A stretch of 64,000 nucleotides of DNA, taken from Sphingobacteriales bacterium. Lineage in GTDB: Bacteria; Bacteroidota; Bacteroidia; Chitinophagales; CAIOSU01. The notes below the pieces were generated by a model, which was given only the letters and a program-made list of their open reading frames with translations, did no database searches and had not been told where the DNA came from. Below, in pieces: positions 5,077 to 56,282 of the stretch (positions within the stretch are counted from its first letter, which is position 1; the number at the start of each line of letters is the position of its first letter). Position numbers and translations under genes: made by a program. The DNA is taken from NCBI GenBank assembly GCA_027483645.1, contig JAIXUD010000017.1, forward strand, positions 124,001 to 188,000, in the 5' to 3' direction.

Positions 5077-5178
5077 GGTTATTTGTTATTGGGTGATTGG
5101 TTATTAGTTAATGGATGTGGCAGAATTAAAGTTCTTTCGAATGTCTGGAATAAGCATCAATATTTTATCAAAAGCAAC

Positions 5179-44984: not shown

Positions 44985-45113
44985 AGGCTGGAGAACACGG
45001 AAAAAGGCACGGAAAAACACGGAAGTTTTCCACGCGTCTATAGGGCGGAAGGGCCCTATCCTAGCATTCTTATGCCCCTTCAGGGCGGGTCATGTTAAAA
45101 TCAAATGCAGCAG

Positions 45114-45148
45114 TCTTGTGTCTTGTGTCTGATATCTTGTGTCTAATT
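45114..45148. repeat. degenerate 7-nt periodic array
   Basis: Five successive heptamers: TCTTGTG, TCTTGTG, TCTGATA, TCTTGTG, TCTAATT. It abuts the 3' end of the minus-strand GT2-fusion gene. See the related arrays at 47168-47258 and 56074-56104. Confidence 0.6.
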
Positions 45149-47119
45149 TTAACAGCTCCCCAAGCCTCTAAAATTGCGCCAAATCAACCTCGCATCCTTG
45201 TAGATGCTATAGTCTTTGGCGTAAAGCAGGTTGAGGCGGCCACGCGTGGCATCGTCAAGCGGTAAGGTGGGTTGTACATCGGCAGGGGTAAGTATGCTAG
45301 GTTTCACTTTAGGAAGGAAGTATTGCCCTTTTTGTTTGTTACCCACAGGTGCATAGCCCACCCAGCTTCGGTTGCCTAGTAGCACCCGCCACCAGTTGGC
45401 GATGAACTGACCGGGGTTGGCAATTAAAAAGGCACCAACTGGGTAAGTAACCAGCGTTGCCAAGCATACGCCCACATCCAGCAGGCGCTTGTTGCGGCGG
45501 TTCATAGGGGTGGCAATGGCCAGGTTGATGTCGATGGCATAAAGGTCACCGGCGGTGTTCTTGCTATTACTGCCAATAATGCTGGGGCTGTGCTCAGGCA
45601 ATATCTTGTAATTCAGTTCTGGCCCCATATTCACCATGGCATCAATGATGGATTTGATGGTAACATCGGCACTGCAAAAGATGAGCTCTTGTATATCGTA
45701 TAGCTTGCGGATGCCCTCTAGCTGGCTCACCGAGCCTAGGTAATGCTCTTGGTGGGCATCTGTCGCCAGCGGACTTACAAACCCGATGTAGCGGTTATCC
45801 ACCCCTGCTTGAGATAGCAACGAAAGCGCCCTATCCGCCTCGGCCTTGCTGCCTACAATGATGATGCGGGGCGTTTCTTGCTCGCGGAACATAAGCTTGC
45901 GGCCCGTAAGCCAACCCCAGCCGTAGCGCAAGGCCACCAGCATAAAGGTGGCATAGATGCCGCCGGCCAATATCATACCCCTGCTAAAGCGGTAGCTCTC
46001 ATCCAAAAAGGCATAAAAGGCCGCTATGAGTAAAGTGCCTATTACCACGCCCCGCACGGTGCGATAGGTGCGCAGCGGCATATCGTAACCCCCGCTGAAG
46101 TAGATGGCTATCAACCAAAACCCAATATAGATGGGCACTATCAGCTGCATATACTCCGGCGGGTAATACTCTAGCGAGCGTTTTACCTCGGTGCTCCACA
46201 GCTCTTTAATGACGTACATGCCGCCAAACAGCAGCCCCGCATCCATCACTGGCAGGCTGAAGTTCTTCACCACGGTGCTGAACAGCGCCAGTAGTGCCCG
46301 AATGTAGATGGCGGTATTGATTACCAGCGCATACAGCTTGGCTTGGCTGCCGCTAAAGTGCTTTTCCGCAAATATGGCCATAGCCTGATAGAAGATGCGC
46401 ACATAGTTGAGGCTGCCCTTCTTGGTGCTCTCGCCCTTGTAGTGTATGATGCGGGCATCGGGGTAATAGTAGTTCTTGTAGCCGCCGAGGATGACGCGGT
46501 AGCTGAGGTCGATGTCTTCCCCGTACATAAAGAAGGTCTCGTCGAGCCAGCCGATTTTGTCCAGCGTTTCGCGGCGCATAAACATGAAGGCGCCCGCCAG
46601 TACTTCAATCTCGTGGGTTTTATCATCATCCAAGTAGCCCAAATGGTACCGCCCAAACCGCTTGCTACGCGGGAATAGGCTGGCCAGTCCAAATATCTTA
46701 TAAAACGATACCGCCGGGGTAGGCAGCGAGCGCTTGCTCTCGGGTAGGAAATGGCCCTTGCCATCCACCATTTTTACCCCCAGCGCGCCTGCATCTGGGC
46801 GGGCATCCATAAAAGTCAGGCACTGTTTAAAGGTCTCCTCTTCCACCACCGTATCGGGGTTCAGTAGCAGCACATACTCGCCTTTGCTTATAGCTATGCC
46901 TTGGTTGTTGGCCTTGCTAAAGCCCGTATTCTCCTTATTGGCAATGAGTATAACCTCAGGGAATTTCTCGCGCACCAACTCCACCGAGCTATCGCTGCTG
47001 TTGTTGTCCACCACTATCACCTCCGCGTCAATGCCCTCCACCGCCTTGCGAACGCTATACAGCGCCTGCTCTAGGAAGTATTTTACGTTGTAGTTGACAA
47101 TGATAACGGATAGGCGCAT
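45149..47119 (-). CDS. GT2 glycosyltransferase fused to a degenerate sugar-phosphotransferase-like region
   Basis: 656 residues from ATG 47119 (MRLSVIIVNYNVKYFLEQAL); the longer frame adds 23 residues derived from the heptamer repeat. Residues 1-270 are a GT2 domain of the rhamnosyltransferase type (VVDNNSSDSSVEL, LLNPDTVVEEETF, FFMYGEDIDLSYRV). About 290-420 are four or five membrane segments. About 425-560 form a Rossmann-like CoA-binding-3 domain (RIIIVGSKAEADRALSLLSQ) as in polyprenyl glycosylphosphotransferases. The following part (NRRNKRLLDVGVCLATLV, NRSWVGYAP) keeps only the ends of the sugar transferase domain, without the catalytic middle. Confidence 0.82.
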   Translation of the reverse strand: MRLSVIIVNYNVKYFLEQALYSVRKAVEGIDAEVIVVDNNSSDSSVELVREKFPEVILIANKENTGFSKANNQGIAISKGEYVLLLNPDTVVEEETFKQCLTFMDARPDAGALGVKMVDGKGHFLPESKRSLPTPAVSFYKIFGLASLFPRSKRFGRYHLGYLDDDKTHEIEVLAGAFMFMRRETLDKIGWLDETFFMYGEDIDLSYRVILGGYKNYYYPDARIIHYKGESTKKGSLNYVRIFYQAMAIFAEKHFSGSQAKLYALVINTAIYIRALLALFSTVVKNFSLPVMDAGLLFGGMYVIKELWSTEVKRSLEYYPPEYMQLIVPIYIGFWLIAIYFSGGYDMPLRTYRTVRGVVIGTLLIAAFYAFLDESYRFSRGMILAGGIYATFMLVALRYGWGWLTGRKLMFREQETPRIIIVGSKAEADRALSLLSQAGVDNRYIGFVSPLATDAHQEHYLGSVSQLEGIRKLYDIQELIFCSADVTIKSIIDAMVNMGPELNYKILPEHSPSIIGSNSKNTAGDLYAIDINLAIATPMNRRNKRLLDVGVCLATLVTYPVGAFLIANPGQFIANWWRVLLGNRSWVGYAPVGNKQKGQYFLPKVKPSILTPADVQPTLPLDDATRGRLNLLYAKDYSIYKDARLIWRNFRGLGSC

Positions 47120-47167
47120 GTGGTGCGTGCTGCGTTGGGTTTGGGGTGGTAAAGTTAGGGATTTTTT

Positions 47168-47258
47168 GGTCGACGGTCGACGGTCCATGGCCTACGGAAA
47201 AATGGTTAGTAATTGCTTGTTGCCGTAACCGTGGACTGTCGACTGTGGACCATCGACC
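47168..47258. repeat. pair of opposed 7-nt periodic arrays
   Basis: 47168-47197 reads GGTCGAC, GGTCGAC, GGTCCAT, GGCCTAC, GG. 47231-47258 reads GTGGACT, GTCGACT, GTGGACC, ATCGACC, which on the other strand is GGTCGAT, GGTCCAC, AGTCGAC, AGTCCAC. The two therefore carry the same GGTCsAy heptamer in opposite orientation, about 33 bases apart. Not coding. Confidence 0.65.
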
Positions 47259-47511
47259 AACGAGTTATGTCGTCCACGAAATGAGTTTTGATAAGGCTTA
47301 GCGGTTGGTTGCTTTGGTGTAAACTTATTTCAGGACGGGTTAATCATTGCTACCAGCATATAGTCCTTACAGGACTTCTTAGATGTTTCGTACCGTACTG
47401 GTTCGATATCCGTTGCTGTTTGGTGTTTTTGGTAAATGCCAGCGGGCTTCAAGTAGCACCCGAAACTCACACGCATATGCATTTCTCCCCTTCCAGTTCA
47501 TAATATTTATG

Positions 47512-47534: not shown

Positions 47535-48311
47535 ATGAGCACATTTCGTGTCTGTTTATTCTTAATTGTTATCTCCCTCATTGCCTCTTCTTGTCAGGTA
47601 CTGTTCCCTAATTATTTGTTGAGGGAGGACAGAAAGTTTACTTATACTGAGTTGGTTGACGATACTTCGGCAACGGCACAAGTCATTATGCCTGGCGACA
47701 TTATCAACTTTCAACTAGGTACTAGAGATGGCTATGGTTTTGTGGATGTAATAGAGCGGGTTGGAGTAAGTGGTGGCGGTGGCCAGCAGGGCCAAGCACC
47801 AGGTACCAACATCAACTATGTGGTACGTACCGATGGCATTGCCGATTTCCCTTTGATAGGCGAGCTAAACGTAACGGGCATGACCCGAATAGATCTGCAA
47901 GAGTTGCTGGAGGAAAAGTACTCCGTAATATACAACGACCCTTTTATAGTGCTAACCGTTACCAACAGGCGTGCATTTGTATTTATCGGGCGGGGCAATG
48001 CCAAGGTTATCAACCTACCTACCGAAAACACTACCTTAATAGAGGTTATTGCCCTAGCTGGCGGCCTCACCAACGACTCAAAAGCACGTAAGGTGCGTGT
48101 AATAAGGGGTGATTATGACCAGCCCATGATTAAAAAAGTAAACCTTTCCACTATATCGGGGCTAAGGGATGCTGATATGATCATACAACCTTACGACCTG
48201 ATTGTGGTAGAGCCTACCACCAAAATTGCACCAGAGCTACTTAGGGAGATTACCCCTGTTTTATCACTAGTAACCACCCTTATTACCATCATTTTGCTGG
48301 TAAGAAGATAA
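47535..48311 (+). CDS. polysaccharide export lipoprotein, Wza-like
   Basis: 258 residues from ATG 47535. SPII signal ending LIASSC, lipidated Cys at residue 20. Poly_export domain (MPGDIINFQLGTRDGYGF) and SLBB-type region (GELNVTGMTRIDLQELLEEK, AFVFIGRGNAKVINLP). The end carries a hydrophobic helix (LSLVTTLITIILLV), as in short Bacteroidota Wza proteins. Forms the outer-membrane export path. First gene of the block with wzc 13 bases on. Confidence 0.9.
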   Translation: MSTFRVCLFLIVISLIASSCQVLFPNYLLREDRKFTYTELVDDTSATAQVIMPGDIINFQLGTRDGYGFVDVIERVGVSGGGGQQGQAPGTNINYVVRTDGIADFPLIGELNVTGMTRIDLQELLEEKYSVIYNDPFIVLTVTNRRAFVFIGRGNAKVINLPTENTTLIEVIALAGGLTNDSKARKVRVIRGDYDQPMIKKVNLSTISGLRDADMIIQPYDLIVVEPTTKIAPELLREITPVLSLVTTLITIILLVRR

Positions 48312-54603: not shown

Positions 54604-56034
54604 CTATACCGTAATCCTCCTCCACGGCTGGGCCTCTTCCAATTGGTAGGAGATGTCCAACAGCAGCTTTTCCTCGCCGTGGTTGGCGCAGAGGAGCATA
54701 CCGATGGGGAGGTCTTTCTCGTCGTCGTGCCCAAGGGGTAGGGTGATGGACGGGCCGCCGGTAGCATTGGCGTAAGGCGAAAAGATGCACCAATCGGCCA
54801 TGCGGGGGAACATCTCTTCAAACTCTAAGTTCATGCCCAGGTAGCCAATCTCGGGTGCCGTGTGGGCCAAAGCTGGGGTAAGGATGAAGTCTATATTTTG
54901 GTCGGCAAACAATTGGCGATAACTATGGTACGATTGGCGCAGGCGATGAATGAAAAACGGCGTTTTCAGTATGTTGTTCCAGTGGTGCTTAGATAGGCCG
55001 TGGGTAAGTTTGGTGAGCTTCTTCCCATCGAAATTGCTCCCGAACATCAGCCCCCCGAAATGCTTAACATAAAATGCCGACATCGACCATAGGTTCACAA
55101 AGTCCTCGGCAAACTGCTCCGCACCAGGTATCTGTATCGGCTTCACCTCATGCCCCATAGATTGGAGCAAAGCCACTGTTTTTTGCAGCACCTCTTTGTT
55201 TGCGGCATCCGCATGTTTCTGTTGGGTGGAGTTGCCCAGATAGCCAATTTTAAAGGTTTTCTTGCTTGGCCCCTCCACCAGCCCAATGCGGGTTAGTTTA
55301 GGGTTGTGGTAATACTTTTCAGCTTCGGCATAGAAGTGCGCGGTATCTCGCACGGTGCGGGTTATCACCCCATCGATGGCAATATCTACCACTTGGGTAT
55401 TAAACAAGCTAGACCGCAGCAACCTGCCACGGCTGGGCTTGAGGCCCACCAAGCCGCAACATGCTGCGGGTATGCGGGTGCTGCCGCCGCCATCAGCACT
55501 GTGGGCTATGGGCACAACCCCGGCAGCCACCAAAGCAGCGGCCCCGCCCGATGAACCCCCGGCCGAGTGGCCAATGTTCCATGGGTTGCGGGTATCGTTC
55601 AAGTTGGGGAATTCGGTAGAGCAAGTAAAGCCAAACTCAGGCATGGAGCTGGTACCGAGGTTAATGAATCCTTGCGCCAATATCTGCTGGGCAATAGGGT
55701 CGGTTTTGGTAGCGGGCTTAGTGTTGGCAAATGCCTCAGAGCCGAAATAGCTTTTTACGCCTTTTACCAAAGTTAAATCCTTAAAGAAGGTTGGCACCCC
55801 CGCAAAAAAACCGTTGCTGGGTGGCGTGTTGGCAGCGGTAAGGCCGCTATCGTACAGGTCGGTAACCACGGCTTTTATCGTCGGGTCTACCTTTTTGGCG
55901 CGGGCAACGGATGCCGCCACCACTTCGGCAGCAGTAAGCTGTTTGCTCTTGATTAAACCTGCTATGGCCACGCCGTCTAAGTCGGATAATACATCATCAG
56001 CAAATCCATGAACCCTGTTTTTCCCGTTGGCCAT
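54604..56034 (-). CDS. amidase signature family enzyme
   Basis: 476 residues. The Ser-cisSer-Lys triad is seen as VPTFFKDLTL (Lys about 85) and GHSAGGSSGGAAALVAAG (about 158-175), with GGGSTRIPAACCGLVGLKPS carrying the nucleophile. It hydrolyses an amide; the substrate is unknown. It is not a GatA by context, since no gatC or gatB lies nearby. No signal peptide, so cytoplasmic. Lies 136 bases upstream of the VWA gene on the same strand. Confidence 0.92.
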   Translation of the reverse strand: MANGKNRVHGFADDVLSDLDGVAIAGLIKSKQLTAAEVVAASVARAKKVDPTIKAVVTDLYDSGLTAANTPPSNGFFAGVPTFFKDLTLVKGVKSYFGSEAFANTKPATKTDPIAQQILAQGFINLGTSSMPEFGFTCSTEFPNLNDTRNPWNIGHSAGGSSGGAAALVAAGVVPIAHSADGGGSTRIPAACCGLVGLKPSRGRLLRSSLFNTQVVDIAIDGVITRTVRDTAHFYAEAEKYYHNPKLTRIGLVEGPSKKTFKIGYLGNSTQQKHADAANKEVLQKTVALLQSMGHEVKPIQIPGAEQFAEDFVNLWSMSAFYVKHFGGLMFGSNFDGKKLTKLTHGLSKHHWNNILKTPFFIHRLRQSYHSYRQLFADQNIDFILTPALAHTAPEIGYLGMNLEFEEMFPRMADWCIFSPYANATGGPSITLPLGHDDEKDLPIGMLLCANHGEEKLLLDISYQLEEAQPWRRITV

Positions 56035-56073
56035 TGTGGTGTGGTTTAGGGTGGTGAAGTTATGGAAAAGAAG

Positions 56074-56104
56074 TAGACCACAGACGACGGACGACAGACC
56101 ACGG
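56074..56104. repeat. degenerate 7-nt periodic array
   Basis: TAGACCA, CAGACGA, CGGACGA, CAGACCA, CGG: four exact 7-base steps with conserved GAC. On the other strand it reads as GGTCTGT/CGTCCGT-type units, close to the heptamer at 47168. Located 39 bases upstream of the amidase start, in the gap to the divergent phosphodiesterase gene. Confidence 0.6.
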
Positions 56105-56282
56105 TAAAAAATTGGTTACGGGTTGCGAGTTGTACTTTTCACCGTAGCATTTAGGGGGAAGGCAATCTTCTGTTAACGAACAATCCCTCATCAAATAACA
56201 TAGCCAATATTAAATTTAGTGCAGGTCCTTATTACACTACCGCAGGATGTACTAAGTTTATAGCGAAACTACCACCCTATTT

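What the first reader, a model, noticed from the sequence alone, without database searches (positions are those of the whole stretch)
47168..47258. Opposed 7-nt periodic arrays in a divergent promoter region
Two arrays of the GGTCsAy heptamer face each other about 33 bases apart, between genes of the same glycan system. Three heptamers equal 21 bases, close to two helical turns, so every third unit would face the same side of the DNA. With 45114 and 56074 there are four arrays in 64 kb, all intergenic. They could be a protein-binding or chromosome-structure element.
Basis: partly seen in the sequence, partly recalled or inferred. Interest (0 to 1): 0.52.

Follow-up and report, generated by a model that had tools for sequence, protein, structure and literature searches.

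The report
Inverted seven-base repeats bracketing gene spacers
The two facing repeats are one example of a genome-wide pattern in which short seven- or eight-base repeats, in many different 'words', sit at gene edges in a fixed orientation and bracket the DNA between genes; this matters because these spacers seem able to be swapped whole between close relatives while the genes beside them stay put.

Summary
Window 47168-47195 (+) and 47231-47258 (-) are two four-unit RGTCSAY arrays facing each other between a glycosyltransferase and a polysaccharide-export gene. A three-unit pattern occurs 108 times in the 4.27-Mb genome and never when read backwards. It is one of at least ten heptamer/octamer 'languages' in this genus (GACACAA, GGTTATT, GTATCAA, GTACAAT, GGTTGATT and others). 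In 464 kb, period-7 arrays are 33 intergenic to 2 coding. Arrays hug gene edges (median 9 nt) and read in one orientation from gene into spacer (81 of 86), at 3' and 5' ends alike, so neighbouring arrays often form inverted, hairpin-capable arms. Between two ~94%-identical congeners most array spacers are conserved and change by whole 7-bp units, but about 8 of 44 are replaced edge to edge (6 share no 11-mer, against 0 of 95 spacers without arrays), with flanking genes at normal identity. This is a new variant of the known intergenic heptanucleotide repeats. I favour hairpin-armed spacer elements shaped by unit slippage and hairpin-templated copying. What replaces whole spacers is unknown; simple reverse-transcriptase, Ku and RAYT explanations were tested and not supported.

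The parts
47168..47195 (+). left array (arm), four RGTCSAY units, the fourth degenerate (GGCCTAC)
47231..47258 (-). right array (arm), four exact RGTCSAY units read on the - strand
47166..47260 (.). inverted repeat / hairpin-capable element formed by the two arms and a short core
   Evidence: the repeat finder I1; DNA fold z -5.7
47150..47157 (-). possible -7 promoter element (TAACTTTA; the TAnnTTTG consensus is recalled) of the glycosyltransferase gene, 10 nt from the left arm; similar sequence upstream of the gene in three congeners
   Evidence: sequence; inference
45149..47119 (-). family 2 glycosyltransferase gene, left neighbour
   Evidence: Pfam PF00535 E 4.7e-25
47535..48311 (+). polysaccharide export (Poly_export/SLBB) gene, right neighbour
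   Evidence: Pfam PF02563 E 2.5e-10
45109..45147 (.). GTCTTGT/GACACAA-language array at the 3' edge of the glycosyltransferase gene
   Evidence: the orthologous edge in G001/G003 carries AATAACC units instead
56071..56106 (.). GACSACR-language array at the 5' edge of the amidase gene 54604-56034
5077..5105 (.). GGTTATT-language array directly upstream of a start codon
16760..16796 (.). octamer-language (ATGTGCNA-like) array at a 5' gene edge

Best explanation
The pair is one instance of a family of array-armed spacer elements: an intergenic core bracketed by two inverted arms, each a short (about 4-unit) tandem array of a degenerate heptamer or octamer 'language' that starts close to a gene edge. 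Shown: tandem units, intergenic location, gene-edge placement, uniform orientation, excess of same-language inverted neighbours, unit-wise indels, and punctuated edge-to-edge replacement of some array spacers. Inferred: arms persist as quasi-palindromes because replication slippage adds and removes units while hairpin-templated copying (template switching between arms, which makes one arm like the other and keeps orientation automatically) spreads one language over both arms; they are tolerated because they lie between genes, and any effect on transcription boundaries is secondary. How a whole spacer is exchanged from stop codon to start codon is not explained.
For: Period-7 arrays 33 intergenic / 2 coding, period 8 11/1, lags 4-6 and 9-13 together 0 intergenic at >=17/21. 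Neighbouring arrays: 19 of 42 more alike inverted than direct by >3; strong inverted match in 36% against 4.1% of random pairs (the 42 include orthologous copies from two congeners). Orientation from gene into spacer 81 inward, 5 outward, 19 unassigned. Distance to gene edge median 9 nt against 41 for random placement, n = 107. Partner arms rank higher than same-language arms elsewhere: mean rank 0.79 over 31 pairs (pairs were chosen by inverted score, which inflates this). Unit-length indels between congeners: 7 bp is the commonest gap length in or next to arrays (12 of 64 gaps; elsewhere 10 of 292). Window hairpin z -5.7.
Against: In the RGTCSAY language itself the two arms of a spacer are no more complementary than arms taken from different spacers (10 pairs, stem -22.5 against -23.7 kcal/mol permuted, p 0.88). 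Direct neighbours are also in excess (12 of 42). Whole-spacer replacement is not predicted by slippage plus template switching; one replacing core has no other copy in five genus genomes.
Confidence: 0.42

Rival explanations
1. Each arm is an oriented binding site acting on its own: a polar gene-edge marker recognised by one or several DNA-binding or recombination proteins (Chi-like or insulator-like).
For: Same orientation at 3' and 5' gene edges (45:2 and 36:3); G exceeds C on the strand read from gene to spacer in 42 of 58 and 38 of 47 arrays; no pair-specific complementarity in RGTCSAY; fixed 4-unit size.
Against: At least ten unrelated languages would need many recognisers; languages change at the same gene edge between congeners. 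No candidate protein was found; only RVT_1, Ku and Y1_Tnp were sought.
Confidence: 0.2
2. Ordinary slippage-born heptanucleotide repeats (STRR/LSSR type), with location set only by selection against coding disruption.
For: 7-, 14- and 21-bp unit indels; homogeneous long runs in the GACACAA language; heptanucleotide excess in bacteria is known (passages in PMC4679880).
Against: Fixed orientation, edge hugging, inverted same-language pairing, capped unit number and 30 of 31 distinct four-unit RGTCSAY arrays.
Confidence: 0.15
3. MITE or REP-like mobile elements whose terminal inverted repeats are the arrays.
For: Inverted arms, dispersed copies, three different elements between ATG and promoter at one gene in three species; one core is a dispersed repeat with 25 hits in 4 of 5 genomes, itself included.
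Against: Y1_Tnp (RAYT) loci carry other palindromes; only 2 of 18 loci read (one locus and its congener copy) lie between GAGTTACG arrays, apparently inserted there. No target duplication seen; another new core is single-copy.
Confidence: 0.1
4. Break healing: 3' ends resected to gene edges are extended with templated heptamers (telomere-like) and rejoined, giving same-language arms pointing into the spacer and whole-spacer replacement.
For: Explains orientation, shared but not copied language and edge-to-edge replacement at once. A bacterial reverse transcriptase that makes tandem-repeat DNA exists (DRT10, PMC12632851; title and start of abstract seen).
Against: RVT_1 found in 1 of 5 genus genomes only; Ku in 0 of 5. 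Cores with terminators between the arms are unexplained.
Confidence: 0.08
5. Transcript-level signals in 5' and 3' UTRs (translation or termination control).
For: Arrays next to stops and starts; where TANNTTTG is present the array ends 8-17 nt upstream of it in 8 of 16; terminator-like hairpins between some arms.
Against: The transcript sense is opposite at 5' and 3' ends; TANNTTTG is no commoner upstream of genes with arrays (16 of 58) than without (79 of 252).
Confidence: 0.05

Closest known systems
Intergenic TAACTGA heptamer direct repeats (MacGregor 2015, PMC4679880; abstract, passages and section 12 read)
   Same: 7-nt tandem units, intergenic, sporadic phylogeny including Bacteroidetes; in Flexibacter litoralis 12 of 14 sets forward before a start codon and one set reversed after a stop, which is the same gene-edge geometry; the paper also notes other heptamers and a possible role in rearrangement.
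   Different: One fixed word there; here many degenerate languages in one genome, paired inverted arms and measured whole-spacer replacement.
Short tandemly repeated repetitive sequences (STRR) / long simple sequence repeats (recalled; Mrazek 2007 known here only through PMC4679880)
   Same: Heptanucleotide unit, intergenic, slippage-type copy changes.
   Different: RGTCSAY arrays are capped near 4 units, heterogeneous between units and oriented.
REP/BIME elements with RAYT transposases (GTAG/CGTC REPs, PMC3733652, search listing only)
   Same: Dispersed intergenic inverted pairs near gene ends.
   Different: No GC-rich palindromic unit; RAYT loci of this genus carry other palindromes.
MITE with internal minisatellite of Porphyromonas gingivalis (PMC4596501, search listing only)
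   Same: Tandem repeat combined with inverted repeats in a Bacteroidota genome.
   Different: There the tandem repeat lies inside the element; here it is the arms.

Membership tests
Intergenic heptanucleotide repeats (STRR/LSSR) | tandem 7-nt units | tested here: met
Intergenic heptanucleotide repeats (STRR/LSSR) | mainly intergenic | tested here: met
   33 of 35 lag-7 arrays in 464 kb
Intergenic heptanucleotide repeats (STRR/LSSR) | near-identical units with open-ended copy number | tested here: inconclusive
   not met for RGTCSAY; met for some GACACAA arrays
TAACTGA repeats | unit TAACTGA | not tested
   not searched for; the window unit is RGTCSAY
TAACTGA repeats | forward before start codons, reverse after stops | tested here: met
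   orientation 81:5 against PMC4679880 section 12
REP/RAYT | copies of the element flank the RAYT gene | tested here: not met
   18 Y1_Tnp loci read: other palindromes; 2 of 18 (one locus and its congener copy) lie between GAGTTACG arrays
MITE | target-site duplication and empty site | tested here: inconclusive
   allele comparisons show replacement rather than clean insertion
MITE | terminal inverted repeats | tested here: met
Telomerase-like repeat addition | reverse transcriptase in every carrier | tested here: not met
   PF00078 in 1 of 5 genus genomes

The most novel reading that the evidence does not exclude
The genus carries a genome-wide gene-edge marking system: polar repeat arrays in many interchangeable languages point from each gene into the spacer, and the spacer between two such edges, promoter or terminator included, is exchanged as one unit from stop codon to start codon by an unknown DNA process that spares the genes.
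Probability: 0.2. Interest if true: 0.85.

Novelty: new variant of a known kind. Interest (0 to 1): 0.6.

Why it matters
Heptanucleotide intergenic repeats have been known for a long time without an accepted role. Here one genus shows many of them under a single geometric rule, together with a measurable, recurrent event (edge-to-edge spacer replacement between 94%-identical species). That makes origin and function directly testable and offers a possible route by which promoters and terminators are rewired without touching genes.

Tried and rejected
RAYT/Y1_Tnp as the mobiliser: present in 16 of 20 genomes with or without arrays; neighbourhoods of 18 loci read, with other repeats. Reverse transcriptase and Ku as the writer: absent from most or all of the genus. 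Spread from a single core element: one new core is single-copy, another is a dispersed repeat. Import of replaced spacers by recombination with a divergent donor: flanking-gene identity 95.0% at replaced and 94.9% at kept array spacers. TTGAAGCA/TGCTTCAA as a universal border: 16 against 2.8 expected in own DNA, but 3 against 2.8 in G002, so at most species-specific. Promoter association: no enrichment of TANNTTTG. Strict constancy of GTC-A-: the three-unit search pattern forces it; near units deviate at positions 2-6. A viral-contig scan with the export protein found nothing.

Limits: gene edges come from mechanical ORF calls, not annotation; language orientation was defined on the same data it was tested on (within-language consistency, e.g. 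13 of 13, 11 of 11, 10 of 10, is the real evidence; the G>C test does not depend on it). Replacement counts depend on the cut-off: <15% shared 11-mers 9 of 44 against 3 of 95 (p 0.0017), <50% 12 of 44 against 21 of 95 (p 0.53); on reading, one of the nine (C52 7238) is an ORF-calling artefact. Part of the output was cut.

Full report
Observation. They form a 32-nt inverted repeat at 75% complementarity, and the region folds as single-stranded DNA at -26.5 kcal/mol, z -5.7. They lie between a family 2 glycosyltransferase gene and a Poly_export/SLBB gene.

Genome scale. A three-unit pattern has 57 + and 51 - hits in the 4.27-Mb genome and none for the backward control. All four congeners have 49-90 hits; the two other genomes of the family, in two other genera, have 0; 17 of 99 genomes in all have a hit, including scattered carriers in other families (70, 42 and 36 hits in G037, G093 and G097). 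A second language, GACRCAAG, has 182 hits in the own genome, 0 backward, is in all four congeners and otherwise in 2 of the remaining 94 genomes.

Many languages. In a 464-kb sample not chosen for arrays apart from the window (window, 200 kb of contig C10, 100 kb each of C13 and C1), clusters with at least 17 of 21 matches at lag 7 are 33 intergenic and 2 coding, at lag 8 11 and 1, at lag 14 14 and 2, at lag 15 4 and 3, and for lags 4-6 and 9-13 0 intergenic and 4 coding in all, although intergenic DNA is about 11% of the sample. The arrays fall into at least ten languages. G005 and G006 of the same family show no lag-7 array in 89 and 100 kb, while G037 has 4 intergenic in 80 kb.

Array form. 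Of 48 RGTCSAY arrays found by three exact units, 31 have exactly four, 17 have three and none has five exact units; with near units 29 have four and 16 five. The S position alternates G/C (GCGC in 10 of 31 four-unit arrays, p 1e-4), so a 14-bp unit is hidden in the array; 30 of 31 four-unit arrays are distinct. The GACACAA language, in contrast, has long homogeneous runs in G002.

Geometry. Arrays lie a median 9 nt from the nearest ORF edge against 41 nt for random placement in the same spacers (n = 107). Read from the gene into the spacer, 81 of 86 classified arrays have the same orientation as the rest of their language, 45:2 at 3' and 36:3 at 5' edges, with 19 more unassigned. Because transcript sense is opposite at the two ends, the rule is geometric. 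It gives inverted neighbours: 19 of 42 neighbouring arrays are clearly inverted, 12 clearly direct, 11 neither, against 12% and 14% in random pairs. Arrays occur in 22 of 63 convergent, 54 of 213 tandem and 20 of 97 divergent spacers of 60-700 bp.

Arm relations. In RGTCSAY, ten arm pairs show no pair-specific complementarity. Over 31 inverted pairs of all languages the partner outranks other same-language arms (mean rank 0.79), a figure inflated by how pairs were chosen.

Turnover. At about 75% identity, the own genome and its congeners carry different languages at the same gene edges: after the stop of the window's glycosyltransferase gene the own genome has GTCTTGT, G001 and G003 have AATAACC. 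Across 398 kb syntenic between G002 and G003 (most aligned blocks 90-96% identical, some lower), 160 spacers were mapped: arrays in both 34, only G002 8, only G003 2, neither 116. Most array spacers align well and differ by 7-, 14- or 21-bp units. Of 139 spacers of at least 60 bp, those sharing under 15% of 11-mers are 9 of 44 with arrays and 3 of 95 without (p 0.0017); six of 44 share none, against 0 of 95; at a 50% cut-off the difference vanishes. One of the nine is an ORF-calling artefact. Replaced spacers change from stop codon to start or stop codon, and in the clearest case (C33 69542) both arms switch language together. Flanking genes are 95.0% identical at replaced and 94.9% at kept array spacers. 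With G001, G004 and the own genome added, one convergent spacer shows four states in five species, and alleles are shared across assemblies (G001 with G002 twice; G002 with the more distant G004, and G001 with G003, once), so they are not assembly errors.

Mechanism. I favour array-armed, hairpin-capable spacer elements maintained by slippage and hairpin-templated copying. Steps shown: tandem units, unit indels, inverted arms, orientation, replacement. Steps inferred: template switching between arms; lack of a primary function. The replacement step has no demonstrated mechanism. RVT_1 was found in 1 of 5 genus genomes, Ku in 0 of 5, and Y1_Tnp loci carry other repeats. One replacing core is single-copy, another is a dispersed repeat.

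Known background. In the papers held, searches for heptanucleotide or heptamer intergenic repeats and for Bacteroidetes inverted repeats returned one close case, the TAACTGA repeats of Beggiatoaceae, Cyanobacteria and five Bacteroidetes (PMC4679880; abstract, passages, section 12 read), whose placement before starts and reversed after a stop fits the same geometry. None of the listed titles and abstract starts described multiple languages, paired arms or spacer replacement; this covers only that library and those searches. Passages of PMC6749651 mention heptamer satellites elsewhere. I therefore file it as a new variant of a known kind.

Source. G003's contig C1 has the same length (513,968) as CAMDKI010000001.1, a MAG titled Chitinophaga pinensis isolate MsE-30jul19-192; this link is an inference, and the name on the MAG was not checked.

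Noticed in passing
L271 (G000:C10:664000-671000) and window 45040-45090: A RAYT gene flanked by several copies of a CGCCCTGAAGGGGCAT...GCTAGCATTC palindrome, also present in the window: a typical REP/RAYT unit. Several other RAYT families with their own palindromes occur in the genus.
   Followed up: partly
L062:15512-15610 (G000:C10:35512-35610): A dispersed palindromic ~100-bp repeat with more than twenty further matches in the own genome, on both strands.
   Followed up: no
G000 against G001-G003: Gene order is largely scrambled between the own species and its ~75%-identical congeners, while the congeners among themselves are colinear where compared.
   Followed up: no
own blocks C13:17668, C13:50044, C1:24930, C1:89060: An octamer family (AGAATTNN) with a constant outer border CTGAATCAGAATT / AATTCTGATTCAG: a distinct inverted-repeat element.
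   Followed up: no
G003 copy of spacer C18 66924: A TCATCCTGAGCGTAGTCGAAGGA block, recalled as a common dispersed bacterial repeat, sits inside a GACACAA array.
   Followed up: no
own genome sample: TGCTTCA/TGAAGCA borders lie next to arrays in the own species (16 against 2.8 expected) but not in G002 (3 against 2.8).
   Followed up: partly
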